Origin: Aptenodytes patagonicus
Taxonomy: Eukaryota > Chordata > Aves > Sphenisciformes > Spheniscidae
Assembly: GCF_965638725.1 (NCBI RefSeq)
Contig: NC_134963.1
Span: 8,253,501-8,317,500, forward strand
Length of the DNA: 64,000 nt
Reading direction: 5' to 3'
The notes beneath the pieces are model-generated. The model was given only the letters and a program-made list of their open reading frames with translations, made no database searches and was not told the origin of the DNA. The stretch's first letter is position 1, and each line of letters opens with the position of its first letter. The translations under genes and the position numbers were made by a program. Of the stretch, positions 1-55,900 are shown piece by piece.

Positions 1-826
1 CGGTCTGTCCACACACTTTCCAAACGGACAGCCTAGAAAAAGGTCATCAAGCTCTGCAAACTAGCTTTTGGATAATTATTACTTCCACTGCTGCCTAATA
101 TATTTTTTTTTTAAGGTGTAATTGTGCCCAAAAGCTTTATTTAGCTGCAGCATGAAAGACACAGGGAGGGACGGTCCATCTTCCAGCAAGGCTAGCTGCC
201 AGTTTGACTTGGCGTCGGGTGGGGAGAAGATTAGCCTAGATTACCTGCCCCACTTTGGAGAAATACTACAAAATGTAACCTGAAGATTTGTTCTAAAGAG
301 GTTGAGCTAGAAAGTTGGTAAAAACATTGGTCATGCACTGAACTGAAAACAGAGGCAGGCTCAGAGGATTCTTCCACTCACAAGCCTTCACTGGAATATG
401 TTAGTCATGCTGGAGGGGATAACTGACATAGACTTTTCGGCAGTGACTTTTATAGCCTCTGCAGATTTCTTTAAAAGAAAGCCCAGCCCCATTTGGATGC
501 AATTTCAAGACCGACTTAAGAGTGTCCACTAGCATCAGCAAGCTGCTGTCTCTTCTCCTGTATTAGTGTTTGTCAGCTGACTGGAAAATTAAATCTAACA
601 ACACAAACACACTTCAGACAGATCAGTTTCCTGACCCAAATCATTACCTGGACGTAAGGACCAGGGCAAAAGGAGTGGACAGGAAAATGCGGTAGGGCTG
701 GCAACCAGCACAGAGTTAAGCTGACTCTGAAACCTAGGATTTGCCAGTGCTTTTTCATGAACCTCTACAGGTTTGTTTCAAACGCCTCCAACAGAAAGGA
801 GAGCAGGAAAATGCATCTTTTCTTAC
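1..826 (-). other. SSH1: SSH1 intron 4, partial
   Basis: This is the intron downstream of coding exon 4. It is A/T-rich with a few short homopolymer runs. I looked for the next slingshot exon on the minus strand and did not find one. Nothing else is recognisable here. Confidence 0.7.
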
Positions 827-891
827 CAGTTTGATCCTATCCTCACAGCGAAGGAGGTTGATCATCACCTGGAGGTGCTGGGGCAAATCAC
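827..891 (-). CDS. SSH1: SSH1 coding exon 4 (residues 71-92)
   Basis: This 65-nt exon lies between the acceptor TCTCTGCAG and the donor GTAAGA. It encodes (G)DLPQHLQVMINLLRCEDR followed by IKL and ends in phase 0. The next exon, expected to begin with the AVRLES-like segment, is not found in 1-826, so the gene continues beyond the left edge. Confidence 0.93.
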
Positions 892-3800
892 CTGCAGAGA
901 AAGCAGAGAAATAATCAGAAAGGGTCTCTCACTTGCTGCACTAAGAATCGCCAGAGTCTTGACCTTTAATGAAATTGGATGTTTCTAAGTCAAAAAATAC
1001 CATTTAAAGGAGGCCAATTAACGTTGCTGTCCCAGAGAATACTAACAGAAGTGAGCTTCTTGGATGAGTGTTATCTGGCTGTGTGAGAACTCGACCTTAC
1101 GGTATTTGGAAGCTACCAAATATATTGAGACCACCTGTGACTGGCACAAATGATGATCCTCTTCCTGTTACAGCATCTTAGAGAAGACAGAAAGATATGG
1201 GCACTGAGGACAGGGGAGGAAGAGGCAGGAGGAATAACTCTAATTAAAAAAAAAAAAAACAAAAAGAGAACAAAGGAGAAAAGAAAAAGACTTTGACTTG
1301 TGAAACACACATAGCATCGTGGGATCAGCCCACGATGGCCTTATGGAGGGTATATCTGAACATGAGAAACTTCAGAGGATGAAGGGCTGCAGGAGTGGCC
1401 CGGTTTGGGTGGTGGATCCCTTTTATCTCAAGCAAAGTGCTGCTCATGCAACAAGTCCCTTAGGCTCTAGAGCAGTGGGTACAGTTCTGTTTGGTGAAAG
1501 CAAGCGAAAGGAACAAGGAATCTACAAGAAAACAAAACAAGTTCACATCTAATAACTTGGTAATGCACTCATAACTTTCCATACAAGATAAAATTCCTTC
1601 CGTAGGATGTTTGCTGGGTATATGAAATTGCTGACAATTAAAGAAACCCAAAGCCAAGCTTGGCATTCAAACACCCTCTTTGTGCTTGGAGTGTTTACTA
1701 AGCAGCAGACACACAGTACCACACTGTGCCTTTCCCACATGCTCCTGCTCTCAGAATGCCCCGATGATCTTATTTCTTCTTTCCCAGTAATCACTTATTC
1801 CAAAACTGCCAAAGACAGAAGGCATAAAACGACTGGGTAAGTAGAATCCACTTCCCTGAACCCCCTATCTGCTTATCAATCCTTATGTATGTTCATCATA
1901 CATACATCCCTACCATTTCTTCCCACCAGTTTGGCACACCGGAGGGGACTGGGGGAAGAAGGACAGTCTGTTCTTAAACCGTGATAAACTCTTACAGGCC
2001 AGATTGTGATGAGTTAACTGAAAAGGGGATTTTCCTGAAACCAGGAAAGGGGATATAAGGAGCTAAGAAACATACATCTACCCAGAGACCCAAATCCTGT
2101 TAAAACGTTCCTCACTCTCACCGGCAACATCAAACAAAACTAAGCAACAGGTAGTTTCAAAAGAACAAACGCTGTCAGCTGGCACCGAAAGTCCCAAGCT
2201 TCAGATTATCGGAGGCTGGGAGAGCACTCAGAGAAATGTCCCTGCCATGCTGAATCAGGACCTCGATAATTACAGAAGAGATGCTAGAGCCCCGTGACTC
2301 AGCCCACCCAATTTTCGTCCCCACAGGCCAAAGGCGAAGGCAAAGATCAAATCACTGAAGCACAAGTGACATTTCTTCATCTGCGGCTGCGGAAAACAGG
2401 GATACATATTCAGCACAGACCTTCTGGCTCAGCAGGCTTCCCTGCCTAAAGAATGCCATGCCGAATGCCATAATGTCTGCAGAGAATAAAGTTCTACTCC
2501 AGTTACAGTTTCGAGATAATGACAAAAGTTTAAACAAAGACTCAATAATCATACGTTCCCATTCGAATCAAGTGGGCTGAAAACCTGATTTTACTCAGCA
2601 GGTTGTACAAGGCCCACTGTGACAATTAGAGGAGTCATCCACCCACCCACCCACCCATGCTATTAGCCATGTCCGCGTGGACGGACGAGCAGCAAAGCAA
2701 GAGGGAAAAAGAATTTCAGTAGGTGATTTAATCCACTACCTGCATGTTTGTGAGGATGCTGGAGACTTCGCTGGCCCTGGGAGCTGTTTCCTTGTTGTAG
2801 GAAAAGGGCTGCGCCTTTCACCATGAAAAAGCTCTCGCTTAGGCTGGAAAACAAATGACAGAGGAAGTCAACTGAAAGGAAATATCAGCAAAATGCGTGC
2901 TCAGGTCTGTACGGCTAGGGAAGGAAGGGCTTCCTCTCACTAAAACGTAGTAAGATTTTGCCATGAGAAGCCGTTCGCAAAGTTTGATCCTGCCACTTGC
3001 ACGGCATGGCTCCAGGATTATTCATGGATTATTCATGTGTCATTTTCCACCAACACTTTATTACTTGGCCACTGCAGGAGATACTTGCCTGAGCTGTCAT
3101 GGGCTGGAAATGACTTTATCATTTGATTATCAAATTCTGCAACTTAAAAACAGTAGAGGGTAAGACTTTTTACAGGCTTAGACCTGTAAAATGACTGAAG
3201 ATCAGGTTCTGAGTCAATCAGTTCCTACTAATTTCAGTTCTTGAGATTTCTTTGGAATGCAAAAGCGAGAACATGCAACCATAAATTGTCTGTAGATTAA
3301 AAGAGGAAGGGAGGGCAGATGAAACCTGCACATCACAAGAGAAAGGAAACTGCACTGAAACCTCAGGGGAAAAAACAACCGACACAATAGCAAAGATTTT
3401 GCTTTGCTCCGGCTAGATACAGCCGTCCTGGAAAATACTACCGGTAAGAAGGCAGGTCGCAGTATGTGCAAATACATAACGATATTTCCACAGAGTCAAA
3501 TGACACACAGGCCCCAGAATATAACTAAAGAGAAGGCTGAACAAAATCAGTAGTTACAGCAAGCACCAGCACAAGCCTAATTACATAGTACCATAATGCA
3601 CTTGCGAGCATTTTAGAATTAGACTCGGACGTAAGCGGTAAAGTTAGCATTTCCCACAAGGCTGAAAATCAACATCTAGTAAGCTACCTTTTAGTTGCCA
3701 CAGTAACTGCTTACACTGCATTTCCTACACCGCTCAAAACGTCGCAAGAGACATTCCTTGTTACAAAGCCCCATTTTCTGCCACCCTACACTTCCAAACA

Positions 3801-18800: not shown

Positions 18801-21800
18801 GGGTATCTCAGCCCTTTCCTCCCCCTGACGTGAAGAAAGTGGCTCTACACAACCCCAATACCAAAGGAGTCAAATTCCTGATGGTTAATACCCAGGAACG
18901 AGCAGAGCTCTCCCCTACCCACCCTAGGAGCGTACCCCGCTTCCCGACCCAGAGCCCCAACCTCAGAGAGCAGCAGCAGAGACAGAGATGCTGCGATAAC
19001 AGTTAAATGCCGTGGCCAGAGTTGACGAGCAATTTTCTAGTCTCTTTCCACCAGGGAAAAAACCCCCACAAACCCTCTTTTATGCTTTCAGTTCATTAAA
19101 CGCTCGTCTCAAAACTAAACTGATAAGGGAGAGAGCATCCCCACTGTTTAGCTCTCTGCAGAGCATGCAATCCCCTCCAGGCAAGCGTACACGCTCGAGG
19201 CTGGAGTCCTGCGCGGGATCAAGACTCAGCTACATGGCAGACAATTAACAAACAGTGGAAACGATGTTTAGAGCCAAATAGCTCTGCTTACCTCACATTT
19301 AATTTACGCTCTTCATCACTGCCAACCTCCAGCTGAGGGGAGAAAAGAAGGACACAGAGAAAGTTACATGCTGGTTGTTTCCATACTACAACTTTTAAAA
19401 AATCCCCACGCTTTTTAAAACCATCCCTACAATAACAGGTTTTGGGTGGTTGCTTTCCGTGGGGGTTTTCTTTCCGGTGCCAGGGATAAGTGAGACTCCC
19501 TGGCCATATATGCCATCAGCACCCAGTGCCGGGTGACAAAGGGGCTCATGGGGATTTTAAAGCTATTAGATCCTAATCCTGCAAGCTGGTCCTAGGGCGC
19601 AGATCGGTTTGAAGATCGCCAACCTCGATGTCACCCAGAGCGCGCACACATCGCTCCCACTGAGCGCCACACGTGAGGGCAGAACCTGTCCCCAGTGAAA
19701 GGCTGCTAACAAAGAGCTGGGCACAAATTAATGCTGTGATTCAGGGTGTGCAGCGACAGCACAAGTGCCCTCCAGCGGATGCAGCCAAAACTGCCCAGCT
19801 GGGACTGCCCCAAACTCCAGCACCTGAACCCCAACCTGGCACTGATGTGCAGCTCCACTGCACACACCGGCAGGGCCCCTCTGCCCTCTCTGAGCTGCCA
19901 CCTCACCAACGAGGCCACCTCCATCTGGGCGCTGGCAGAAGCCGTGTCCCGAGGCTAGGACGATGCACACCTGGTTGTCCAGTCATCAACAAGTCCTATG
20001 TCTGCTGCCTTCCTGATAAACACACTGCTTTGATGGCAGGCATGTATTAAAACGGCCGCTTTTTCACCGGGCACTGGTAGAAAGCCCCCCTGGAAGCAAA
20101 TCTGGCTGCTCAGGTGACATTACTGGCCCGTACACTTTATTTACTCTCCTTAAAACAGAAGCATGCTAGCTGACTTAAGCCTATTTTCTGAGAAACATTT
20201 TCACATTGCTGTGCTTTCCAGCCACCTCCTTCAACTTCTCTATTAGACTCTGGACAAAATTCCATATGAAAGAAAAACAGAGTTGGGGCTAATTGCATCC
20301 AGAGCTGACCGAAAATAAAAAAAGGCTCAAAGATAATTCTCCTCCTTTGGTCCTGTGTAAGCAGACAGAAGAGAAAGGGCCAGGAGCATCCCCTCAGAGG
20401 GCAAGGTGGTGGGGAGATGGTTTGGACCCATGAAGCAAAGCGGGGACCTTACAGATCGCCCGGCAACAGGAAAACCTTCAAACTTGCAACACACCGCACA
20501 CCAGCGCCTAATGAAGCTGGAGGGACACAAACCTTTAAGAAATCATGCTCCATCAGTGCTAACACTCAGCCAACATTTTGTTACTTACTCCAACATTGCT
20601 TAAAACCCACATCAAATAAGGGCCACCGTAAGGCTTACTCGTTTCCAGGCGGTTTTGTAGAAGTTAAAAATAAGCAAATAGTTTCATGTTAAGCGTTCAA
20701 GCTTTAAGTTTTGCGTGTGTGTAGGACCTGGGTTGTTCCCCACCCCGCCAAGTTAAGACTCGGGAGGCCAGAGCGCACAGGAGCTGCTCTGTTTACAATC
20801 TGCGAGAACCAAGTAATGCCAGGAAAAAAACCCCAAATGCAACCTCACAGGCCGGATATTAGAAATATAGCCATTTGGAGGAAAAGAGATACACAAAGCC
20901 CATCCCAAATGACTGCAGCTGATGGCGAGAAACATACCATGGCTATTTTTAGTCTGTTTACACTGTGCAGTGGCAGCAGGCAGAGCCCCGGGAACACCCC
21001 GAGCCCCAGTGCCCCCCGCCAGCAGATCCCCCCCAGCCCTGGGAAGGTCTGGCAGGTTTTTGGCCTTTGTAAGGTCACCCTCCTGTTTGTTTGGGTCTGT
21101 CACGTAGCAACAAGGGGCAGAAAACCTTTTTTTCTTTTTAAACAAAAGTGACTGTGAAGTCATGACTGTTGTCAGCCGAGGCTCCGCAGCAGAGCCGGCC
21201 CCTGAATCTGCTGCGGGCTCACCTTTTGCAGAAGCTGACTTGCTTTCAAAGTCAACTCTCCCTGTATTTTCTATTAAAAAGCTGCAGTAAAACCAAAACA
21301 AGGCAGAAGCAGTCAGCGTGGCAGACAGACCACAAAGTTGCTGTCTGCCATGCTGAGTGCTTCTGCCTTGTTTTGGTTAGAGCATCCCTCCGAGCTGGCA
21401 GGTTTTATGGTGTGCCACGCATGTGATGCCGTGGACCTGCAGCTGCCCGCCAGCACCACGGATCCCACCACGGCACGGACACCAGCGCCGGGGCCAGACC
21501 TCCGCATCCCTCCCCGGGGACTGTGCAGAGTGCGGCCAGGCTGAAGGACCTGGCATGGAGTGGGAGGTGGTGTGGAAGGGAGAGGGCAGCGGACCTAAGA
21601 AATGCATGCAAGTTTGCAAGTGTGTATGAACTACTCTCTCCTCCTAAGAATTTACGGCACGCTACGTTAACACGGCAGCAAGCCTCTTGCAGGCGGCAGC
21701 ATCCATTTTATAAATTCCTTCAGGCTCATGAGTTACGAGAGGCTGCAGCAGCATACTCACAATTAGCAAGGACGTATGGTCATCATTTTCCATTAAAAAA

Positions 21801-24166
21801 AAAATAATCTAATAATTATTCACATAGGCTAAAAGCCCCAAAGAGCCCTAATTTTTCTTGCAAGAAAGATCATAAAAGATCAGGGAGCAGGCTGGCACTT
21901 TTTGATGGGATTTTTCTTTGAAATAACTTTGTAAAAACATGCTTAATTTGGAAAAGGAAGGTTTATAGTTTTATGGTATTTCATGCCAGAAGGGACCATT
22001 CAAACAGAACGGGAGCTGATGTCTTCCTCTGGGAGCCACCGAAGCACACCTGAGCCACGGACATCAGTGGCCGAAGTGCCCTGGCATGGACAAAACCAGG
22101 TGACAAGTTCGGGGCAACATTTTCAAGAGGGAAAAGGAGACTCGTACGGTCACCCCACTGAAAAAATAATAGTGAACACAGAGCTCCTACACAATGCCAT
22201 GCCTAACGCAGATGTACATGGCAAGGCGAGGGGCATACTGCTTTGACTCCTCTCCCACCTGCACCAGTTAAATCCAGTCTAATTCCACTGCCTGCAACAG
22301 GGTTACAGCCCATTTACATCTGTGTCAATCAGGTGGCCACTAGGTCTCGTTTAAGACTCTGTCTAAACCAGAACCCAACAAAATTCCTTCGGAAAAATCC
22401 TCAGAAAAGCACAAGTCCTGTCTCCAAGTTTCTCAATGAACACAGCGCGGTCCAAACACCGGGTCCCTGCAGCCTCAGGAGCCCAAATCACACGACACAG
22501 ATCTATGGCAAAACAGTCGGCGAAAGGAGGGGATGAGTCACGTCTCCAGCGAGGGCCGTGCAGAGGGAACCCCTGCAGCCCCTCCGGGCGAGGGAGAACC
22601 TGTGAGCCCCGTGGCACTGTCCTCCTCCTGCCTCCCCCGCCTCAGACCGGCTAATCGTGGGAGTCACAGGGACCTGACAGGTGACAAATAGGATTGTTTA
22701 CCTGGCGGGAGCTGGGACAGAACAAAGCCAAGGGCAGCCAGCACCAAATAAAAGGGGGGGGGGGGGGGGGGAGAGGGGTGCAGAGGGAATATGTAGGGAA
22801 ACACTGGGCCTGTCTTTGGGGGTCACAAAAGACATGGGTTAGGAGGAAAAAAGGGATGGACAAGGAAGAAGAAAAAGAAATTGGAGGGTGCAGCTGTGTT
22901 GGGATGGCACATGGGAGCTGCGGTGAGGGAAGACAGAAGCCCAAGGCCGGGCAGAGGCAGGAGAAGGCATTTCTGGGGTACGAGAGTGAAGGGGGCGTGC
23001 AGCAGAGCTGGGACACACAGGGTGCCTGTCCCAGCAGGGCAGGGGCATGCGGAGTGCAGCATTATAGGGGCAGCAGGTTAAGCGGCGTGTACACGGCTCC
23101 AGAGCAGCAGAGCCGAGGAGGAGGAGAGGGCAGCAGCATGGTGCAGGCTGCGCTGCAGTGAGCAGTGGCAGCAGACAGCGCGGCACTGGGACGTCGCACA
23201 GGTACGGGGTGGAGCGGGACGGGAGCTGCTCGGGCAGCGGGGAACTGCCCGCGGCTGCCTTGGGGAAGGGTGAGCGTGAGCTTCCTGCGGGGCAGAAGCT
23301 ACAGTGGGTGCGGGGAAAGGCGGTGCCGTTGCAGCACAGGCTGCACAGGGACAGAGGGGTAACGCAGGGGGTACAGCAGAGCATCCTGGCGCAGGAGGCG
23401 GTGGCGGCTGTGGGGTGTCAGGGAGGGAGAACGTATGGGGCCACGGGGCCAGCAAGCACAGCTGCTCCACAAAGACAGGCCCAGCACGCTGCCCGGGGAT
23501 TTACCTGGCAGAGAACAGTGGAGCAGGCTGCCCCGGGGTTCAGCTAGCCCGAGCTACTGCCCGCAAGGGCTGACGTGGGGGACAGCGATGAGGGAAATGG
23601 GGCTGCATGGGGGCGAGGAGGGGGCGGCCAGTGTGCAGCGGGGCAGAGTGGGGAGAGGGCTGGATGGTCCCGGGTCTGGTTCAGCCTGGCAGCATCAAGG
23701 GGCTGGAGGCTGAGGCAGAGTGGGGCTGGCAGGGCTGGGCAGCATCGGGGGGCTGTGAGGGGAAGGGGCTGAGATGGCCGGGGGCCTGTAAGGGGCTGAG
23801 CTGGGGCCAGGAGGGGCTGGGGGGGGCCTGGGGGCTGCGAAGGGCCAGGGCCTGCGAGGGGCCAGGGCCTGCGAGGGGCCAGGGCCGTGGTGCTGGGGGC
23901 CGTGAGGGGCCTGGCGCCGCCTGGGACCGTGGCCCTGCGCGGGGCCGTGAAGCTTTGCGGGCCGTGGGGGCCGCGGCCGATGCGCGGGGCCCAGCCGAGG
24001 CGCCGCGTCCCGCCCCGCCCCGCCCCGCTCCCCGTCCCCCCGCCGCCGGGGCCTGCTCTGCCCCCCGCGGCCCGGCCCGGCCCGGCCCGGCCCGGCTCAC
24101 CTCGCTGGTGCTGGCCGAGGAGGCGGCGCTGGGGGTCGGCGAGCGCTGCAGCGTGACCAGCGCCAT
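827..24166 (-). CDS. SSH1: SSH1, slingshot protein phosphatase 1: 5' part of the gene, coding exons 1-4 (residues 1-92), continues off the left edge
   Basis: Slingshot phosphatases dephosphorylate and reactivate cofilin/ADF at F-actin and so drive actin turnover. Four minus-strand exons with consensus splice sites join in frame: 24166-24101, 19332-19292, 2843-2740 and 891-827. The encoded N-terminus begins MALVTLQRSPTPSAA, continues through a short acidic stretch (EVGSDEERK) and the segment SESFFMVKGAALFLQQ, and reaches LPQHLQVMINLLRCED. I recognise these as the conserved N-terminal region of SSH1; human SSH1 is nearly identical here. The catalytic dual-specificity phosphatase domain and the actin-binding tail are outside the window. 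The start lies in a CpG island in the context GCCGCCGCCATGG, and an in-frame TAG six codons upstream excludes an N-terminal extension by direct read-through. Introns 1, 2 and 3 are about 4.8, 16.4 and 1.8 kb. Paralogues SSH2 and SSH3 are less likely, given the match and the linkage to DAO and SVOP. Confidence 0.95.
892..2739 (-). other. SSH1: SSH1 intron 3
   Basis: This GT-AG intron of about 1.85 kb contains a 14-nt A run at 1246-1259 and a short CCCA tetranucleotide repeat at about 2637-2657, roughly 85 bases inside the 5' end of the intron. No further exon or RNA gene is recognised. Confidence 0.8.
2637..2657. repeat. (CCCA)n tetranucleotide microsatellite
   Basis: About four and a half perfect units of ACCC/CCCA lie within SSH1 intron 3. 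The array is short, so it may be only weakly polymorphic. Confidence 0.8.
2740..2843 (-). CDS. SSH1: SSH1 coding exon 3 (residues 36-71)
   Basis: This 104-nt exon lies between the acceptor TTTTCCAG and the donor GTAGTG. It encodes LSESFFMVKGAALFLQQ, then a Gln/Ser-rich stretch ending HPHKHA. It begins with one base of a split serine codon and ends with one base of a split glycine codon, both consistent with the neighbouring exons. This is the most recognisable slingshot sequence in the window. Confidence 0.95.
8550..8572. repeat. A-rich simple tract
   Basis: Two long A runs are separated by a single G. No flanking target-site duplication or retroposon body was seen, so this is annotated only as low-complexity sequence. 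Confidence 0.85.
12111..12131. repeat. (AAAAT)n pentanucleotide repeat
   Basis: About four units of AAAAT/TAAAA lie in SSH1 intron 2. Confidence 0.75.
13800..13840. repeat. A-rich low-complexity tract
   Basis: Repeated A runs are interrupted by G, CCCCC and AAGAA. This is simple sequence within SSH1 intron 2. Confidence 0.85.
16153..16247. repeat. Decayed copy of an old sauropsid/amniote interspersed repeat
   Basis: The phrases ATTGAACTCAGTGG, GTGCTTAACTCTAAGC and CTCCCATGGACTTGAC, in this order, resemble a dispersed family that I recall from turtle, crocodilian and bird DNA, with a hallmark close to CCCATTGACTTCAATGGG next to GTGCTTAACTTTAAGC. The family name is not asserted. The copy is diverged and has no intact ends. 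Confidence 0.5.
19292..19332 (-). CDS. SSH1: SSH1 coding exon 2 (residues 23-36, last codon split)
   Basis: This 41-nt micro-exon lies between the acceptor TTTTCTCCCCTCAG and the donor GTAAGC. It encodes LEVGSDEERKLNV plus two bases of a serine codon, completed by the first base of exon 3. The short acidic sequence matches the human SSH1 segment at this place in composition and length. It is too short to stand out as an open frame and was found by reading-phase and protein continuity. Confidence 0.92.
21291..21378 (-). ncRNA. Near-perfect 38-bp foldback hairpin in SSH1 intron 1; candidate microRNA-like precursor or recent inverted duplication
   Basis: Bases 21291-21328 are the reverse complement of 21341-21378 over 38 positions, with one mismatch (21312/21357) and one G-T pair (21318/21351). 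They flank a 12-nt loop at 21329-21340. Read on the SSH1 sense (minus) strand, the loop contains TGTG. Known primary microRNA transcripts have a stem of about 35 bp and an apical loop of at least 10 nt, often with a UGUG element, so the geometry fits. Near-perfect pairing is less typical of an old microRNA and equally fits a young template-switch inverted duplication. I do not recognise the arm sequence as a known microRNA. The foldback is certain from the sequence; an RNA product is inference, and confidence refers to that. Confidence 0.35.
21961..22330. repeat. Possible diverged interspersed repeat remnants
   Basis: The phrase CATGCCAGAAGGGACCATT at 21982-22000 resembles a core that I remember from amniote dispersed repeats. 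The stretch 22250-22330 (CACCTGCACCAGTTAAATCC, GGGTTACAGCCCATTTACAT) resembles another that contains TGTAAAT/CACCAGTGTAA motifs. Both are short and diverged. Only a repeat-library search could name them. Confidence 0.35.
22754..22771. repeat. 18-nt G homopolymer run
   Basis: Eighteen consecutive G are followed by GAGAGGGG. The run can form G-quadruplexes on the plus strand and gives a C run on the SSH1 sense strand. Such runs are prone to length error in sequencing and to slippage. Confidence 0.9.
23836..23886. repeat. 17-bp GC-rich tandem repeat, about three copies
   Basis: The unit GGGGCCAGGGCCTGCGA is repeated almost perfectly about three times inside SSH1 intron 1, near the 5' end of the intron. 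Confidence 0.8.
24069..24095. repeat. (CGGCC)n array beside the SSH1 exon 1 donor
   Basis: About five units of CGGCC lie immediately downstream (minus-strand sense) of the GTGAGC donor of SSH1 exon 1, in the CpG island. Confidence 0.8.
24101..24166 (-). CDS. SSH1: SSH1 coding exon 1 (residues 1-22)
   Basis: The ATG at 24166-24164 has the context GCCGCCGCCATGG. The exon encodes 22 residues, serine/threonine rich and ending STSE, and stops at a GTGAGC donor (24100-24099) in phase 0. The in-frame stop codon 18 nt upstream fixes this as the start. The 5' UTR continues toward higher coordinates in the CpG island, but its 5' end cannot be read from sequence. Confidence 0.93.
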
Positions 24167-27443: not shown

Positions 27444-27637
27444 ATGCGTGTGGCCATCATCGGGGCCGGGGTGATCGGCCTCTCCACCGCCCTGTGCATC
27501 CACGAGCAGTACCACAGCCTGCTGCCCTCCCTGGAGATGGAGGTCTATGCAGACCGCTACACGCCCCACACCACCAGCGACGGGGCAGCCGGCTTGTGGC
27601 AGCCCTACCTGAGCGACCACGGCAACCTGCAGGAGAC
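27444..27637 (+). CDS. DAO: DAO first coding exon (residues 1-65)
   Basis: The acceptor CCCCCCTGCAG at 27430-27431 is followed by 12 nt of 5' UTR (27432-27443) and the ATG. The exon encodes [20 protein letters not shown], the FAD-binding dinucleotide fold, then [16 protein letters not shown] and NLQE, with a split threonine codon at a GTAAGT donor. A GAG triplet array starts six bases after the exon end. Confidence 0.96.
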
Positions 27638-30600
27638 GTAAGTGAGGAGGAGGAGGAGGAGGAGGAGGAGGCTGGTGCCGTGTGCCCCCCGGCGTGCCCA
27701 TCGGTGCACGAGGGGCTGAGCTGCCCGGGCACAGCTCCATGGGGCTGGCAGAGCCACCGCCCTCCTGTTTTCATCGCAGGCTCTGGAATAAAGAGACATT
27801 CGATTACCTCCTCGGGCACCTGGGCTCCCCGGCAGCGAAGGAAATGGGACTTTTCCTAATTTCTGGCTACAACCTGTTTACGCAGCCGGTGCCGGTAAGG
27901 AGAAAGTCACAGCCAGGGCTGGGAAGGGCTCCAGCTCGGAGGCTGCCCGGGGGCGGGCAGGGTTGTACTTCTTCCCAGACGATGCTCTGAATGCTTCTGA
28001 ATCCTACCAAGTTTGTCTTGTGACAGTTTGCCCGGGACTCGGTGTCTTCTGGGTGCTGTGATGCAATATTGGTATGAAGTAAGGGCTGAGCCCTCCGAGG
28101 GTGGGAGCCGGCAGAGCCTCCCTGGCCGTGGTGTGCCACAGCTGCACGCCTGCCCGCGCTCCTTTGGGGTGGGCTGTGTCCCCCCCACTGCTTCTGTCCC
28201 GCGATGGCACAACGATTCGGGTTCATTAATGAGCTCGGACCTTTTTCCCTACTGCAGGACCCGTCTTGGAAGAACATAGTCCTGGGATTCAGGAACTTGA
28301 CACCAAAAGAGCTTGAACTCTTCCCTGGTTACAGGTATTCTTCAGTCCGTTTCCCAGAGAGTCACTGATGTGCTTTCCCCCAGGCAGGACAGGTATGGCT
28401 GGATGGTCCCAGACGCCTCCCTGTCAAGGGGCGGCAAGGACAAGAAACTGCAGGCGCAGAAGTGGCCTTGCTTGTTACAGCTGCTTCCCTTAAAATAAGC
28501 AGGAAACACCTCAAACAAGCCGAAAAAGCAGCAGCCCAGCATGGAAACCATTCCAGCTCCTCTCTTACTTCACGAGATATTATTAAACTGGGGGAAGAAA
28601 ATCAGCAGAAGGTGTTTTATGCTGTAAACAGAGGGAAAAAAACACACACTTCTTGTGCAAAGGGGGAATTGGGGTCCCAGAGCTGCAGCGGCCGTTGGGA
28701 GCGCCGGGGCAGGAGGCGGCTGCTCTTGTAAAGCTGCTGCGGGTCCTCATGGCTTCCTCTCCTCATCTGGTTTCAGCTACGGCTGGTTCAACACGGCGCT
28801 GATGCTGGAGTGCAGGAGCTATCTGCCGTGGCTCACCAACAGGTGAGTGCGGAGCTGCCACGGTGCTGGGGCTGGGGCTGTGCCTGTGCGGGAAAGCTGC
28901 TGCTCCCCCCACCCTGATTTCTCAGGCTGGCAGGACATGGGAGGCAGGTGTGGATTTTCGTCCTGCACATCAGGTGTTGCCCCAGATCCTTCTCTCATGC
29001 CAAGTTGGTGACTGAGTTTAGGCGGCACTGATTTTAGGCGGCCGCCCCGTGTCCTGCTGCACCTCTGACCTGCTCAGCTTGAAAATGCTGGTGCTGGTGG
29101 CTTCCACGTGACCTTCCACAGGGGACCTGAGCATCCTCCCCTGCTCTCAGCAACCCTCACCCTGTGCCCCACAGCAGCGCAGGGGTGAGGGCATGGCAGG
29201 ATGAGCTAGAGGAGAGGGGAGGCAAGGGTGCATCCCTGGGAAGCGGGGAAAAGGGTCTGGAATTCCAGCTCGTTGCCCCAGTGGGGTAACAGACTCCCCA
29301 GTTTAACAGTTAGCCCAGGAGTGTATTTTTGCATGATAAAAATGAAAATAATGAGATACATAGAGCTGCATTTGAGCACTTTCTGGCTTTTAGCTATGGG
29401 AGTGTTTGGGGCTTGGTTTTGTTCTTGTCATTTCTAACATGGAGCGGGTGCCCTACCCACAGCAGAAAGCCTGGGCTCTGATGCAGGGCTTAGCAGGACT
29501 GATCACCTTCGGTAGCTCTGGGCCATTAGGGAAATGAGCTAATGACTGGAGACCATTAGGAACCGCTGAGAAGACCACGGCTGGTTATTGCAAGGAGCAA
29601 CAAGCCGTACCTACTCTGGGTATCAATTACAGGCACTAATTTGAATGGTACATTTGCTTTTAATTTCCCAGTAACAAATGAAATCGTTCTTCCCAGGTTA
29701 ATGCAGAGAGGAGTGAAGTTTTTTCATAAGAAGGTTGAATCTTTCCAGGAGGTGAGTGGCGATGTCGAGCCAGGGCAGAGCGGGCACAGCCCCGTCCCGA
29801 CATGGAGAAGCAGCATCCAGCAGGCACATGCTGCTCTGGGATGTCCCTTGGCATGAGTGATGGGCCAGGGGACAGCGGCAAGACTACGCCAAGATCTAGG
29901 AAACAAATTCTACCAGGAAAGATAAAGGCTCTCGGGCATCAAGAGATGGCTGAGAGGGGACGGGGTAGCGCATTTGGCCGGCACTGAGCGAAGATGCAGC
30001 CAAGCATCGGCAGTACAGCTTTCCCTTAAACTGCAAACATTCTCCTTGCCTGCACACATGGGGTCTCTGCGGGAGCTGTGCCGGGGAAGCTATGCCCTGG
30101 ATCCGGCCCTTATGGTTTATTCATTACCAGACTGTTGGACCGAGTACTTGGCTTGGCTTTGATGCAGGAATCTCCTGCCGCCCGCGGGTAGCGCCCTTGG
30201 AAGCATCACTGTGTGTGCACCGCTCACCGCGCCGCGTCTGTCTCTCATTAGATGTTTGCCCAGGGCATGGATGTTGTAATAAACTGCACTGGGGTGCGTG
30301 CGGGGGAGCTGCAGCCCGACCCGGAGCTACAGCCTGGCCGTGGACAGGTCATAAAGGTGAGGTGGGTGCAGGGCTTGTGTCCCCTCTCTTTTTTCCGGAG
30401 GAGCCATTCGTTAGCTACCTTATGAGGAGGTATGCCCTCTAGGACAAATCGCGGGCTTGTGGGCTGGACCCACACTGGGCTCAGGTCCTGATTCCCAGGA
30501 AACAACGGTCATGTAAAATCCTCGTGGGGGGGGGGGGCAGAGCAGAAAACCTGGATCCTGTTCCTGGTTCAGCCGTGGGGATGCCCCGAGTGTCCAGCCC

Positions 30601-33600
30601 GTTTCTTGGTTGGGTGAAGGTGGGGGGAGGCCAGAGGCATAATGCTAATAATAAAAAGACAGAAAATCCTTGTGAGAAGAGGATGATTATTTGGGGAAAC
30701 ACAGACTCACACCAGGTAGGAAGCTCCTCTGCTTGCCTACCTGCCCTCCTATCTCCCTGTCTTCCCATGGCGGCAGCGCAGGGAAGCCAGCACCGTGCTG
30801 TACATAGAGCCTGAGCAGAAGGGGGGGCACCACATGCAGACCCCAGTGTCTGCATTCGCTGAGATGCCCACATCCCTCCCGCTGCCTCCCTGAGCCAGGG
30901 ACCCTGCTCTCCAGCTCTCCCTGACCCTCTCCCCTTCGTCTCCCAGGTCCTGGCCCCGTGGGTGAAGCATTTCATCATCACGCACGACATTGAATCTGGT
31001 ATCTACAACTCGCCGTACGTCATACCGGGGTAGGTGACAGCGGGCGAGGCAGGGTCTGGCTGGCGTTAGCGATGCTTTGCTATCAGCGCTCCTAAAGCAC
31101 CAGCTCGGACGCGGCTCCCTGCTGACGCCTGCCCTGCAGCACCCCTGGTGCAGCAGCCCAGGCCTGGGTTCATACCTGGCCTGATGATGCTTTTATTTGC
31201 TGCGTGGGAGGAGAGCAGAAGGACGTGGGCAGGCAAAGCAAGGGAGCTCCCTCGGTTGGCACAGAGAGCACGAGCTCCCTGCGCAGACCCCAGCTCGGCA
31301 CTCGGACGCGAGGTGGGTCCGGGCTGGTCCTGGGCTCCCGGGCTCTTGGATCAGGCTGCACCACAGGGCTTCGATGTCCCTGGTCTTGTCCTTTTCCAAG
31401 GAGCAAATCCCACCAAAGCAAAACGCCAGTCTGGGCCAGGTCCTCAAAAGAGCCAAACACTGACAGTGGGGCAAGCATTTTGGGAGAGATCTTTTGTTTT
31501 CACCTTTATACCCAGTTCTTTTGTCATTGGTGTTGACAAAACGGCTGTACAGCAGCTCATCATGGGGAAAGGCTCTTCTGATTCATGCTCCCATTAAAAC
31601 CAGTAGCAGGAATCCTTTTTACTTTAATAAAAGCCGACCCTAAAAAGCTCAGCCCTTCCCGCACTGTTACGCTGAGCTGTGCCTGCAGCTGTTGGTGAGA
31701 CATCTCCTGAGGGCATCCCATTCGGTTTAGCACCCGTGCAGGGCTCCCTGCCACCTCCCTGCAGGAACCAAGGAGTCCCAGGGGAAAACCTTATTTCTGT
31801 GTCCCCACAGCAGTGAGGAGGGCTGAAATGGGATCCTGGCCCCAAAAGCACCATCTCCCGAGCTCAGCGAGCGGCAGTGGCTGTGCCCAGGCAGAGCCCA
31901 GCTTCCAGCACTTATCTTGCACTTTCCACCTGCTTTCCACCAGCAGCTTTCTTAGGGGAGTTGGGATCTATTTGAGACGGCAGCGTATGCATGTACCCAG
32001 GGAGATAAATTGCAGGAGAAATAAATATGTCTGCTGTTCATCCCACCTCTGTTTCCTCCTGAGAGCAGTCATCTACTCTGCTTTGGCAATGGGGAGTTTT
32101 TTTAAGCTGTAACTTGAACACTGCATTTCTGGCACTTCCTATTGTGCTAATATTTCAGGATTAGGCAATAAGCCATTATGTAAAGAGGAACTTTGAATGC
32201 TCACAGCCCCCAAGCAAAGTATTCCAAGAGATTTCTGATCACAGTCCCAGCTACATATGAATTCCTCTCCCTGTGTTTATTTTAGCTTGAGCTGTCATAG
32301 CTGGCCACCAGGCTGGCTCCCGAAGGAAGCAGCCAGGTCCAGCTCTCAGGCGTGGGGGACACCTCTTCCACGCTGGAGAGCTCGGCCCCGGGGGCTCCCC
32401 TCCTGCATGCCCCAGCATTCAGCCCTTTTGTCTTTGTGCTTCCTAGGGCTCAAGCAAGGTTTTAGAAGGGTCCAGCAGGTACAGACACCCCCAGCTCCCC
32501 CCAGCCTTAACCTGTCATGTCCTCTGTTAATCCGCAGGAGTTTTGGGGTGGCAGCAACAGAAATCTGTTTCTTTGTGTTCCCCACTGCAGCCATCCTGTT
32601 CCTTCCAACTCTCTTCCCCAGCCAGACAGGAGCAGACCTGTTTGATAGAAGATGAAATTAGCTGTTTGGTTTGCCCAGGCAAGGGCCTTTGGGGTGCTGA
32701 TAGTATTTAATGAATGACTTGCTCATGAGCAGACATGCAGGCACCGCTCTCTTGCCTGCTTGGTGTGAGAGTTTCTCTGGGAGGAATATGTTGCAGGCTC
32801 AGGGCGTAGCAGGATCCATACATCACACACATGCAGAGTCCCTCCGTGTGATGGCCCAGCAAGGGACGGCTGGGGACACTCACCACCATTTATCTCCTTT
32901 GGCTCTTGGTGCAGGAGTGAGTCCACGGTCTTGGGAGGGATCTATCAGCATGGCAACTGGAACGAAGAAAACAGCGCCCAGGATCACAAAACCATCTGGG
33001 AGAACTGCTGCAGGCTGCTCCCTGCTCTCCAGGTGGGTGACCCCGACCCAACGCCCACCGCCGGGAGGTGGGGAGGGAGGGGGCATGGAGAGCCCGGGTG
33101 CTCGGGCACAGGTGAAGCCGCCGGGGAAGGATGCTGAGGACAAACCACAAAATCTGAATGAGTAACACACGGTGCCTGCCTTCAGCAGGCCAGGAGAGCT
33201 GTAAAGCGACCATTGCTTATGCAGTGTCAGCCGCCGCGCCGAGAAACATACCAGTGACAGGTGAAGCGTGCACATAGAGTAACCCTGGGCTTTTTGCGTG
33301 CACCTCACAGCAGCACGTAGCACTCAGCTTAGGGTAAAACACGGGGGGGTGGCACAGCTCGGTGTTTGTGCGTGCCTGGCCGTGTTCACCGTGCACATCT
33401 CGGGCTCTGTACACCTGGCTGATCGACAGGCAGGGTCTGGACTGGCATTACTGTTGAGACAACGTTTGTAGGAAAAAGGAATTACTGATATAGCTGGTAA
33501 ACAATTAGAACAAAAGCTTTGGGGGGGCCCAGCCCGGGGGGCCCAGCCCTTTGGTCGTGGTGCATCCCTCCTGCCTTTTGGCGCTGCTGCACTAGAGAAG

Positions 33601-35708
33601 GGCTGGCGTGTGGTGAGGCTGGTTTGTATCCACGCCTGACGCTGCGCCCTGCATTAGCAGCAAAGGCAGCGCTAATTGCGGTTGCCTTGCTGGCTCTGCT
33701 GCAGGCTGGCGATGTGCAGGCTGTGATCCAAAATTGTTCTGCCCAGTCGCCCTTTGCAGCATCACAGGAGCCGGTGCAGCAGCGGGGATGGGGGAGCCTC
33801 TGTCCCTGCTCATTGCAAGAGCCCTCATCTCGCGGATCGCTTAGTGCCGTGACGTTTGGCTGCTGCAATTCGCAGAAATGCTGTGCAGGTGCTGATGTGC
33901 TTTTGCTTTCAGAAAGCAAAGATCGTACAGGAATGGAGCGGCTTGAGACCAGCGCGCCCCTGGGTTCGCTTGGAGCGGGAGACCGTCCGCCACGGGCATT
34001 TCCAGGCAGAGGTACTGTGCACAGCCCCCGGGTGCCGAGTGCCATTAACCACCACGTTAATTGTGCATCAGTCACTGTGACCTTGGCAGTGCAACACCAA
34101 CGTCCAGCTAACGCTGTCGCTCTTCAGCCCGCAGCTGCACTGCCCTGCGTTCATTGGTGCTCGCCCTGTCTCCCCTCTAATAACGGGTGAATCTTTGAGC
34201 CAGTTTCAGCCCAGCGTCAGAGATAAGTGTCAAAGATATTAAGTTTTGTTGGATTTTATGGGGACAGTGGGCAGGGAATGCTCCTACCAAAGGAAAACCT
34301 GCAGCTGGACCTTAGTCCTTAATAGACACCAAAAAACCCATATGGGAGAAAAACTCTGGCATGGGCTCTGCTGGTCCCAGAACCACATGAAGCACACGTG
34401 AACCATGTTTTGGTCTCAGCATTTAAAGTAGCGTGGTTTTCTGCTGGGAGCCCGTAAGTGTACAGCCCTTGTGCATGCAAACTTCATGTCTCCGTTTAAT
34501 AAAACCCAATACGCAGTTTTTAATAAAATGCTCAGGGCCTCCAGCACTGACACCAGGTTGTTGGTGCAAAAGGTTGGACTTCTTGAGATTTCTTCCAGTT
34601 CGAAGCTCAGCAGCAGCATGAAAGGAAACCTGGTGAAGGCACAGAGGGAGGCTGGCGGGGCTGTAGCTGCCGTGGGGCTCTGAAAAATTCAGCTGCCTCT
34701 GTGTAGGTAGAGCTGGGTGTCTAGTGTAAAACTTCCCCCGGACAGTTTAAATTGCCTTCCACGGCTAATGTATCTTTTAAGAGAAAGGAGACCAGGGATG
34801 GCACGAGTTTCAGTGTGCCATCTGTTCTCGGGCCCTCAGCACAGCACCTTTTCATGTAGGACCACATCACGCCTTAGCGCTGTCGCCTGAACGCTCATCA
34901 GCAGACCTGCAGAGGGAATCCTTGATTCGATTGCGTGCATATGTCTCTGTACAGCTTGGAAGAAGAGATTAAAGCTCCAAAGGGGATGGCGACTGCAAAA
35001 TGTAATTAAATGTAATGAAAATATATTCAATTTTTAGCTGGAGAGTCTTGGAAAGAAAACGGTGTATTTAGGCAAAGCCCAGAGCACGGTTCAAAGCCAT
35101 GCTGTATTTGAAATAATTTATGGATCGCTCTGTTCCTTTATCAGCACATCATATCTGCGCTGCCTTGGCACAGGAGAGGTGTAGCTATTGATCCCAGCGA
35201 TGAGTCAGGGCTCCTGCTGAAGCAAAGTAATTTACCTTGGCAGGAACAAACACTAGGTGGGATGTAACGTGTTGTGCTCTGAGGACCACGGCTGCCAGCC
35301 CTGCTGCTGCATTTCGGGGTGGCTGGAGCAGCGGGTGCAGAGGATGCTCCGGGGCCCCGCTGAACCATGCAGAGTTTCTCCTGCCTCTCCAGTGGCTTTT
35401 GGAGGGAGGGAAAGAGCAGTGGGTCGCTGAGCTGTGCACTGGGAGCCCCCAGATCGAAGGATCAATCTAAAGACACTAAGGACATTCCCAGCCACTATCG
35501 TGGCTCCTTGCTGCCCTTAGCCCCAGAGGGCTCCAGCGCAGCTTTCCCAGCACGGATCCCTTCTCTTCTCCCCCAGGTGATACACAACTATGGCCACGGC
35601 GGGTTCGGGATCACCATCCACTGGGGCTGTGCCATGGCAGCAGCCAGGCTCTTTGGGACCATCCTCCAGGAGAAGAAGCTGGCCAGCCCGCCACAGCCCC
35701 ACTTGTGA
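27444..35708 (+). CDS. DAO: DAO, D-amino-acid oxidase: complete coding region, ten coding exons, 347 residues
   Basis: This peroxisomal FAD flavoenzyme oxidatively deaminates neutral D-amino acids, including D-serine, to 2-oxo acids, ammonia and hydrogen peroxide. Ten exons with GT-AG introns join into 1044 nt with no internal stop: 27444-27637, 27780-27894, 28258-28334, 28777-28842, 29697-29751, 30252-30356, 30947-31029, 32915-33032, 33913-34011 and 35577-35708. The product has 347 residues, the same as human DAO. The Rossmann GAGVIG lies at residues 7-12. Active-site Y224, Y228, R283 and G313 are in register, as are the lid segment IYNSPY and the HNYGHGG motif (307-313). Two oddities are GAAGL at 47-51, where human has VAAGL, and a C-terminus PHL, where human has the peroxisomal signal SHL. 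The start has G at -3. Related D-aspartate oxidase (DDO) is excluded by length and by these motifs. The gene is intact. Confidence 0.97.
27644..27670 (+). repeat. (GAG)n triplet repeat adjoining a DAO 5' splice site
   Basis: About nine perfect GAG/AGG units begin right after the GTAAGT donor of the first DAO coding exon, on the transcribed strand. Confidence 0.92.
27780..27894 (+). CDS. DAO: DAO second coding exon (residues 65-103)
   Basis: This 115-nt exon lies between TCATCGCAG and GTAAGG. It encodes [16 protein letters not shown] and [17 protein letters not shown]; the ISGYNLF segment is characteristic of DAO. Confidence 0.96.
28258..28334 (+). CDS. DAO: DAO third coding exon (residues 104-129)
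   Basis: This 77-nt exon lies between ACTGCAG and GTATTC. It encodes [18 protein letters not shown] and LELFPGY, ending with two bases of a serine codon. It matches the human DPSWKDTVLGFRKLTPRE segment. Confidence 0.96.
28777..28842 (+). CDS. DAO: DAO fourth coding exon (residues 129-151)
   Basis: This 66-nt exon lies between TTTCAG and GTGAGT. It encodes [11 protein letters not shown] and YLPWLTN and ends with a split arginine codon. Confidence 0.95.
29697..29751 (+). CDS. DAO: DAO fifth coding exon (residues 151-169)
   Basis: This 55-nt exon lies between TTCCCAG and GTGAGT. It encodes [18 protein letters not shown], matching the human RGVKFFQRKVESFEE segment. It is short and recognisable only through phase and protein similarity. 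Confidence 0.95.
30252..30356 (+). CDS. DAO: DAO sixth coding exon (residues 170-204)
   Basis: This 105-nt exon lies between CTCTCATTAG and GTGAGG, phase 0 on both sides. It encodes [15 protein letters not shown] and the [10 protein letters not shown] motif, part of the FAD domain. Confidence 0.96.
30526..30537. repeat. 12-nt G homopolymer run in a DAO intron
   Basis: Twelve consecutive G occur on the DAO sense strand, in the intron between the sixth and seventh coding exons. Confidence 0.9.
30947..31029 (+). CDS. DAO: DAO seventh coding exon (residues 205-232)
   Basis: This 83-nt exon lies between GTCTCCCAG and GTAGGT. It encodes VKHFIITHD and [11 protein letters not shown], carrying Y224 and Y228 of the active-site lid. 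Confidence 0.96.
32915..33032 (+). CDS. DAO: DAO eighth coding exon (residues 232-271)
   Basis: This 118-nt exon lies between GGTGCAG and GTGGGT. It encodes [20 protein letters not shown] and [14 protein letters not shown]. The motif LGGI-Q-GNW is typical of the family. Confidence 0.96.
33913..34011 (+). CDS. DAO: DAO ninth coding exon (residues 272-304)
   Basis: This 99-nt exon lies between TTGCTTTCAG and GTACTG. It encodes [16 protein letters not shown]; the R in GLRP is R283, which binds the substrate carboxylate. Compared with the human GERTGFRP stretch, the residues just before it differ (EWSG). Confidence 0.95.
35577..35708 (+). CDS. DAO: DAO last coding exon (residues 305-347 and stop)
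   Basis: This exon follows the acceptor CCCCCAG. It encodes [17 protein letters not shown], then the C-terminal helix and QPHL followed by TGA. The HNYGHGG loop contacts FAD. The terminal tripeptide PHL differs from the canonical SHL. Confidence 0.96.
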
Positions 35709-52900: not shown

Positions 52901-55900
52901 AATCCACTTAGCTCATTATTTAAGGCTCAGAATATATTTCTAACCCAGGGTTGCTCAGAGGCAGCCAAACTGTGGCAGAACAAAAGTGACACAGAAAGAA
53001 GTAATTCATCTACTGAACTCTATTTATGAAAGATTAATCAACTGAATGTAGGACTAGCCAGCAGATATCCTAGAAGACTGGTTTTGCATTGAGAAGCTGT
53101 TTCAATTTGGTGAGGCTTTCCACAAGGATGCTCTTCCCAAACTGACTGATGCAGACAAGTAATAGTACTATTCTCTGACCCTTCTACCGTCCGTTAAAGG
53201 GCTGCAAATTTTGCCTTAAAGTATTTATAGGGCAAAATTCTGCTCTCTCTGACTTTGATACATTTGGATTGAATACGGGGAGCTGAATTTAGCCCTGCAT
53301 TTACTGAACAGTCAGTTCTCCACCATCCATTACTGAGTTGTAGATTAATTTCACCATGAAATTAGGTGACACCCAAATGGCCCCCCTTGTGCCAACAGCA
53401 GTAACTTGCTGGATGCAAGTTAATTTGCAAAAAGGCAGATTCAACAAAAAGAGTGGAGCATTACATGAATGCTTTATGCTGCTTTTGGACCTGAGCTAGT
53501 ACTAGTGTATGGGGGTAACCTCAGCTCCACACTACTTGGACAATCAAGATTTGACTGCAGCTATGTGTGAGATTTCTAATTGGTAGGATTGAATGGATGT
53601 AACCAACAGCAGAATTTGTCCCTCTAGGGACCAGTATGCATAGCTACACTGCTCACCTCTATTAATAAAATGCATTTTGCTCTGGCTTTCATTGGAAGGA
53701 ATTCAGCATATAAGGTTACCCTGTAAAGAGTGAACATTGAGAAAAATGTCATGTTAGCACATTGAGAAAAATGCCACGTTAGCACAATGAGAGAGGTTCA
53801 AACATTTCGTTTGCCTTTTATTAGAACTGCCAAACCCATAGTAGTAACGCAAAACCCTTCCTAGCCCTCAGAGTCAGCAAGACTGCGGACACTGGTTCAG
53901 ACTCCCCTTTCTACATCAGAACAAAACCCCTTTAGTTCATCATTGCAATGGAGGACAGAATTTGCTCTGTTCGTGTGATTTTGTAACCCTATAGTTGTTA
54001 GCTAAATGCAGCAGTTCTTGATGCATATGTTTTCACAACCCTGCTCTGGTCTGGGACAGGCATTATGCCTGTTATTTTCAGTCTGGTCCATCAGCATTCA
54101 ATACACTCTTGCTGGGTAAAGTACTTCTTCAGGGCTTTACAACTGGCTCAGAGAATTTCACATCAGTCTACTCTGCCAGGTTTCAATTCTCCAAAAGGTG
54201 AATACTTTCAAGGTCTGATCCTGTTACTGGTATAAAATAATTTGCATTCTTTTATTGTGGGAATTCAAAAAGAAATCATCTAACTCTGCAGAGCCTTTGT
54301 TTCAGACTGTGCCAAGGAGTAATGGTACAGCTTCTCTGTGAGTACTTCCTGAGGATGAACGCAAGCGCCAGCAGCCAGTCAAGGCTCTCTTGTCTTCTTC
54401 AAACCGTCTGGTAAGATTTGTCGTTCTTTGCTCCTACTCTATTTGCATTCCATTGACTCGTCCTGTTTCTGCCTCTAAACTCCTTAGGCTTTCTTTGATG
54501 TTTGTGACAAAACTCCTACTAACTTGACAAATGGTGGATTGATCTCTGAGTAGCTTCCCAGAACTCAGTTCATCAAAGTACAAAGTTGCACACAATATTA
54601 TATTAAATCAGTGATTAAGAGGAGAAGGAAGTAAAATCATGTAATGAAATGTAGAGCAGTCCCCTATATATCGCAGCAGAAAACAGGAACTGATTAGTGC
54701 TGTACAGAACTATTTTCTTAAGAGAATACTCCATATCTTTGCAAGTCTGGATGTTGGCACTGTGAATGAATAGTCATACTCAGCATTAGATAATATCTCA
54801 CAGAAAATTCCCAGAGGAGGCCACAGCTTCTCAGGTGCAGCTCCTACATATGTACAGATAGAGGGATGTCTGCTATAGTCAGTTAATTTATTATTGCTGG
54901 ATGCTTTCTTTTTAATAGCACCTTTCATAAAAATCTCTCTCTCATACCCATTATAGAAGATACAATTATAAAGATACCCATGTCATTCCATTGAAATTCA
55001 GCCACTCATATCCAAAGTTACATAGCCTACTTAAGGATATTAGAAAGGAGCTACTTTTCCTGCTTCATATATACTTACTCCTCTGTCAAAGGAATCACTA
55101 TTATAGTTAGAACAAGAAACAGACTCAGCAGCAATGAAATCCACTCTGAGGTCTGTAACCGGCTCTTTGTCTCTCATTAAGTCACGTAGCCTTTGTGCAT
55201 TATCCGCCCCTCTGTAAAATGGCACTAGCTGTGCTGTAGCTGTTCCACTGGGGCTCTGTGGAACATCATTAATATGTGTTTGCAGTACAAGGCATTATTA
55301 ACTCTGATGCTTTGTCTTTGTTGTTCGCCTGCCTCATTCCAGTTGCGCTCAGTTGGAGCTGCATGGCAGAAACTGCCTTACCGTTGGGCAATACACAGCA
55401 GGCTAGGGACTTTCCTATTTTACATACACGTTACGCTTTTGTGCAGCTTCTAAAGGTGGGCAGGAGAGCAGTAAAAGAAAATTAATAATACTGTGATGTT
55501 CCATCTCAGCTTTGAATCTTTTATCTGGGAATGGCAATAGAAAAGACAGGATATTGACTTGCCTTGTGAAGAAGTCTGTGAGCCATCAATCAAAGTTAGA
55601 CTCTGACTACTCCGAAATAGCACCTCCATGGGGCAAAATATCAATTATTAATAAGGATAAAAGACTACACAGAGAGAGAATGGCTATACTCTTCCCTTTA
55701 CATTTATAATTAAAAGCCTAGAGCAGAGTTATTTATTCCAGGTGGAAAATTTAGAGATCCCCCTCTTCAGTGAATGGAATGACACAGTAATAGAGAAATA
55801 TCCTGATGCTGCCTTCTTATTAGAAATGCGTCTGAGCCATCAAGATATCTTCAGTGCTCCAGGTTTCGGCTGTGTGGTTTTGGAATTCCAACGCAGGTTC

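What the first reader, a model, noticed from the sequence alone, without database searches (positions are those of the whole stretch)
21291..21378. 38-bp near-perfect foldback with a 12-nt loop in SSH1 intron 1
The arms 21291-21328 and 21341-21378 are reverse complements except for one mismatch and one G-T pair. As RNA this is a stem of about 38 bp with a 12-nt loop that contains UGUG on the SSH1 sense strand, close to the known geometry of Drosha substrates. The flanks outside the arms do not pair, so it is a discrete unit. It is too perfect for a deeply conserved microRNA. It is either a young microRNA or endogenous hairpin-siRNA source, a target for A-to-I editing, or a recent template-switch inverted duplication. 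I do not recognise the arm sequence.
Basis: partly seen in the sequence, partly recalled or inferred. Interest (0 to 1): 0.75.

Follow-up and report, generated by a model that had tools for sequence, protein, structure and literature searches.

The report
Young foldback in SSH1 first intron
A unique 38-base-pair near-perfect foldback in the first intron of what looks like a bird SSH1 gene is real and far beyond chance, and it most likely arose when the DNA-copying machinery briefly switched template and copied a short stretch backwards; whether its RNA is ever cut into a small regulatory RNA is not known.

Summary
The foldback is real: arms 21291-21328 and 21341-21378, 36 of 38 positions complementary, 12-nt spacer. 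It is far beyond chance: foldback score 30, against maxima of 10-16 in 100 composition-matched resamples and a next-best of 20 (an AT repeat) in 304 kb of the same genome. It lies in intron 1 of SSH1, on the - strand. Three searches of the 1.35-Gb genome found only this place, so no repeat family was found. No Rfam family reaches its cut-off; weak miRNA matches fall on both strands to unrelated families, at levels that antisense strands of real mir-147 and mir-30 loci also reach. Nine let-7 precursors score 9-14 and fold at -31.5 to -46.9 kcal/mol, against 30 and -64.8/-70.3 here. Best explanation: a fairly young local inverted duplication from short-range template switching, a published mechanism that can seed microRNAs (PMC8794818). 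Its RNA should form a stable stem in SSH1 pre-mRNA, but Drosha features are mixed and no expression data could be examined. No related genome was available to date the second arm. Real, ordinary in kind; interesting only if small-RNA reads show precise processing.

The parts
21291..21328 (.). left arm of the foldback, 38 nt
   Evidence: 36 of 38 complementary to the right arm
21329..21340 (.). 12-nt spacer (loop); on the SSH1 sense strand CAACUUUGUGGU, with 3 further pairs in the MFE
21341..21378 (.). right arm of the foldback, 38 nt
21318..21351 (.). imperfect pair 21318 G / 21351 T: left arm keeps a CpG (21317-21318), right arm has TpG, as expected of a deamination after duplication
   Evidence: polarity is inference
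21312..21357 (.). mismatch 21312 G / 21357 G
24101..24166 (-). SSH1 exon 1, coding part, followed by GTGAGC donor
   Evidence: identity by resemblance to recalled human SSH1 N-terminus; a Pfam scan of this piece was off frame by one base and says nothing
19291..19335 (-). SSH1 exon 2 candidate (QLEVGSDEERKLNVR); boundaries approximate
   Evidence: best of all minus-strand frames of the window (score 50, next 26)
2720..2845 (-). SSH1 exon 3, approximate; the match runs a few codons past the likely donor
   Evidence: (85.7% over 42 aa of recalled human SSH1)
824..895 (-). part of the next SSH1 exon
   Evidence: 95.8% over 24 aa

Best explanation
It is a fairly recent, single-copy inverted duplication made in one step by short-range template switching during replication: the nascent strand folded back, or jumped to the opposite strand, copied about 38 nt in reverse complement about 12 nt away, and returned. 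Since then two point differences have accumulated, one of them of CpG-deamination type. SSH1 pre-mRNA carries it as a stable intronic stem-loop. Shown: sequence, apparent uniqueness in its genome, location, rarity in the sample examined. Inferred: the mechanism, the age and the absence of an established function.
For: Arms 95% complementary with 12-nt spacer and almost no pairing outside. No other copy of a 27-nt arm core with up to 3 mismatches in the 1.35-Gb genome, and none of the 128-bp or 1.3-kb stretch, so no repeat family was seen to supply the arms. Far beyond chance. Published precedent: template switching can create perfect stems in one event, human MIR633 among the examples (PMC8794818, abstract, sections 5 and 9 read); great-ape gold-standard events have median copied length 12 and maximum 128 nt, and the process generates nearby perfect inverted repeats (PMC7954356, abstract, passages and section 11 read), so 38 nt is within range though above the median.
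Against: No outgroup sequence was available, so the one-arm ancestral state was not seen and the direction of copying is unknown. The poly(dA:dT) enrichment reported within 150 nt of great-ape events (T8) has no real parallel: the only run of six or more A or T in 21079-21590 is a T7 at 21127-21133, just over 150 nt from the left arm; the 150-nt flanks are 51% and 32% AT against 53% in the window. An old hairpin kept near-perfect by selection or repeated conversion would look the same.
Confidence: 0.75

Rival explanations
1. A young functional intronic microRNA (or hairpin-siRNA source): the SSH1 pre-mRNA stem is cut by Drosha about 11-14 bp above its base and by Dicer near the loop, giving a lineage-specific small RNA of about 22 nt. 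The same template-switch origin would apply.
For: Stable stem in the transcribed orientation; a CNNC at +16 to +18 from the modelled 3p cut on the sense strand for all four modelled cuts, 11-14 bp; one motif can suffice for Drosha (PMC10954719, passages); precedent of miRNA loci born by template switching (PMC8794818).
Against: A CNNC also falls at +16 to +18 on the antisense strand for three of the four modelled cuts, so it is weak evidence; nearest UG is 17-20 nt before the cut on the sense strand, not at the base; UGUG misplaced; 38-position stem lengthened by 3 loop pairs, with 4 nt left open in the sense MFE. No Rfam family above cut-off. No held paper contains the six core strings searched (supplements not searched). 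No expression data could be examined.
Confidence: 0.12
2. A member of a hairpin transposon family (MITE) or another dispersed repeat.
For: Short non-autonomous elements can have the size and shape of RNA hairpins (PMC3495686, start of abstract seen in the listing).
Against: Only itself is found in its own genome by three searches; no clear target-site duplication at the arm ends on reading.
Confidence: 0.04
3. An old structure under constraint (for example an ADAR-editing substrate or splicing-regulatory stem) whose pairing is maintained.
For: A stem of this stability in a pre-mRNA could bind double-stranded-RNA proteins (established knowledge); location 2.7 kb into intron 1.
Against: Nothing tested here shows conservation; both differences (A.C and C.C) break pairing on the sense strand; conserved let-7 hairpins of this genome look quite different.
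Confidence: 0.06
4. Assembly or sequencing artefact (foldback chimera).
For: Foldback artefacts exist in long-read data (general knowledge).
Against: The arms differ at two places and have a 12-nt spacer and unique flanks; artefactual foldbacks are as a rule exact and much longer (general knowledge). Raw reads were not available.
Confidence: 0.03

Closest known systems
Short-range template-switch mutations forming inverted repeats (Walker et al. 2021, PMC7954356; Monttinen and Loytynoja 2022, PMC8794818)
   Same: Local near-perfect inverted repeat with short spacer, single copy, abrupt ends, length within the reported range
   Different: The published events are polarised by comparison of related genomes; here no outgroup was available
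Young microRNA loci born as reverse-complement repeats (MIR633 in PMC8794818)
   Same: Long near-perfect stem in transcribed DNA, plausible substrate
   Different: No small RNAs shown; Drosha motifs mixed
let-7 and mir-147 precursors of the same genome
   Same: Stem-loop of similar total length
   Different: Foldback scores 9-14 for nine let-7 loci against 30; mir-147 model 38.7 bits here against cut-off 57, while the true mir-147 on C10 scores 91.3

Membership tests
template-switch inverted duplication | near-perfect reverse-complement copy close to its source | tested here: met
   36 of 38, 12-nt spacer
template-switch inverted duplication | not part of a dispersed repeat family | tested here: met
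   only itself found in 1.35 Gb
template-switch inverted duplication | outgroup with one arm only | not testable with these tools
   no related genome held ('no relatives here')
canonical animal microRNA | stem of about 35 +/- 1 bp with unpaired flanks and open apical loop | tested here: inconclusive
   38 positions, flanks unpaired, loop 12 nt but partly paired in the sense MFE
canonical animal microRNA | Drosha motifs (basal UG, apical UGU, CNNC) | tested here: inconclusive
   CNNC in range on sense for four of four modelled cuts and on antisense for three of four; UG and apical UGU not in their usual (recalled) places; PMC10954719 passages say one motif can suffice
canonical animal microRNA | precisely cut 20-26 nt RNAs from both arms | not testable with these tools
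   no small-RNA reads
mir-147 (RF00693) and other Rfam microRNA families | score above the family's gathering cut-off | tested here: not met
   none; best sub-threshold 42.5 of 95 and 38.7 of 57
MITE | multiple dispersed copies | tested here: not met

The most novel reading that the evidence does not exclude
A lineage-specific microRNA caught close to its birth: a one-step template-switch inverted duplication in SSH1 intron 1, still nearly perfect, already processed by Drosha and Dicer into a small RNA found in few birds.
Probability: 0.1. Interest if true: 0.45.

Novelty: new member of a known kind. Interest (0 to 1): 0.22.

Why it matters
If it is what it seems, it is one more clean example of how a single replication error makes a long RNA stem, here in what looks like a bird intron. 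Its near-perfect state makes it a cheap test case: orthologous introns would date it, and small-RNA data would say whether such a newborn stem is processed.

Tried and rejected
Rejected: known RNA family; repeat family; let-7-like conserved miRNA; chance. Led nowhere: exact-pattern scans of viral contigs and genome contigs for any relative (0 matches each); full-text search for six core strings of the arms (0 papers); SSH1 with intron, microRNA and chicken (one paper, in which SSH1 stands once, in a pathway table). Literature searches showed only the top 20, 20, 20, 12 and 10 of 415, 85, 4,647, 71 and 39 papers, and none of the listed titles is about this locus; one search held a misspelt author name. 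A recalled 2023 paper on miRNAs from template switching was not found and the identifier that I tried is not held, so I do not rely on it. (Pfam on the exon 1 piece) was off frame by one base and is uninformative. In one search two of nine let-7 loci (L035, L037) were folded on the wrong strand; one search repeated all nine on the right one. The age range rests on recalled bird substitution rates. I could not establish the species.

Full report
What is there. The arms at 21291-21328 and 21341-21378 are complementary at 36 of 38 positions with 12 nt between them. The two exceptions are 21318 G with 21351 T and 21312 G with 21357 G. Pairing ends abruptly: of the first six positions outward only one would pair. 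As RNA the 128-nt stretch folds at -74.1 (+ strand) and -71.9 kcal/mol (- strand), z = -11.46 and -10.71, with 0 of 200 shuffles as stable on either strand.

Is it chance? No. With a simple ungapped foldback score (+1 match, -3 mismatch, loop up to 60 nt) the window scores 30, whereas 100 first-order resamples in 2-kb blocks had maxima of 10 to 16. In 264 kb (the window plus 20 stretches of 10 kb from the same contig, 878 N) the next best was 13. With four further stretches from four large contigs (304 kb in all) and loops up to 1000 nt the next were 20 and 18, both in one AT-rich repeat. These 24 stretches are a small sample (240 kb of 1.35 Gb), so how many like it the whole genome holds is not known; there may well be hundreds.

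Where it is. SSH1 runs on the - strand: the coding part of exon 1 at 24101-24166 with a GTGAGC donor after it, an exon 2 candidate at 19291-19335, exon 3 at about 2720-2845 and part of the next exon at 824-895 (queries recalled from memory). The hairpin is therefore in intron 1, about 2.7 kb after exon 1 and 2.0 kb before exon 2. DAO lies to the right on the + strand.

What it is not. Whole-genome searches with the 128-nt stretch, with 1.3 kb around it, and with a 27-nt arm core allowing 3 mismatches found only this place (the DNA search warns that it skips very common words), so no MITE or other dispersed family was found. Rfam gives nothing at its gathering cut-offs over the whole window. 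With a relaxed threshold 17 matches appear in a 288-nt stretch, 17 of 17 below their cut-offs; six at E below 0.001 come from five unrelated miRNA families, mir-147 on both strands. The best E-values are not small things on paper: 2.4e-7 for mir-147 and 4.4e-7 for mir-1263. But a perfect stem earns much of such a score by shape. In this genome the genuine mir-147 is on C10 at 91.3 bits, and its antisense strand scores 36.4; of six mir-30 places over the cut-off (62.3 to 82.3 bits), two also match on the antisense strand at 45.9 and 37.9 bits. The six matches here have 28.2 to 42.5 bits. That such scores reflect shape is therefore well supported but is inference: a random perfect hairpin could not be put through the tool. 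Nine let-7 precursors of this genome have foldback scores of 9-14 and, each folded on its own sense strand in an 88-nt cut, energies of -31.5 to -46.9 kcal/mol, against 30 and -70.3 (+) or -64.8 (SSH1 sense) for this one (in one search two of the nine had been folded on the wrong strand). One further control family, mir-17 (RF00051), did not complete.

How it probably arose. A near-perfect, single-copy inverted duplication with a short spacer is what short-range template switching leaves. In the gold-standard great-ape set the copied length has median 12 and maximum 128 nt, and the process generates nearby perfect inverted repeats (PMC7954356; abstract, passages found by search, and section 11 read). 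Monttinen and Loytynoja describe microRNA loci, among them MIR633, created as reverse-complement repeats with mismatches added later (PMC8794818; abstract, sections 5 and 9 read). Of the two differences here, 21318/21351 has a CpG in the left arm and TpG in the right, as expected if the right arm lost a CpG after the duplication (inference). Two differences over 76 sites at recalled bird rates of 1.9 to 3.3 per site per billion years give about 8-14 million years with 95% limits from 1 to 50; a CpG change, or repeated conversion between arms, would shift this either way. The poly-T association of the ape events has no real parallel here: one T7 run just outside 150 nt, and flanks no richer in AT than the window.

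What it may do. If SSH1 is transcribed, its pre-mRNA carries the stem. For Drosha the picture is mixed (stem length, cut distance and motif names from passages of PMC10954719; the usual motif positions are recalled). The stem has 38 positions where 35 +/- 1 bp is typical; flanks are unpaired; a CNNC lies at +16 to +18 on the sense strand for all four modelled cuts (11-14 bp above the base). But a CNNC falls in that range on the antisense strand as well for three of the four, no UG lies at the base (nearest 17-20 nt before the cut on sense), and the loop's UGUG is on its 3' side. The sense-strand fold also closes three more pairs in the loop, leaving 4 nt open. Editing by ADAR is possible for such a duplex, but nothing here tests it. 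Six core strings of the predicted mature RNAs occur in none of the 5.39 million held papers; supplementary tables were not searched.

Verdict. It is a new example of a known kind.

Noticed in passing
27444-35705 (+): Nine pieces matching recalled human DAO (D-amino-acid oxidase) at 58-75% identity, in order and on the + strand; human residues 272-303 were not matched. The one stop in an alignment lies past the likely exon end.
   Followed up: partly
53734-53792: Tandem repeat of 25 bp, 2.4 copies, 91% match.
   Followed up: no
L026:6392-6536: Overlapping AT-rich imperfect palindromes (TA/CA-rich) on contig C1, the next-best foldbacks in the background sample.
   Followed up: no
L039 (G000:C10:3670454-3670531) and mir-30 places on C21 and C2: miRNA covariance models match the antisense strand of their own loci at 36-46 bits, a useful yardstick for sub-threshold miRNA hits.
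   Followed up: partly
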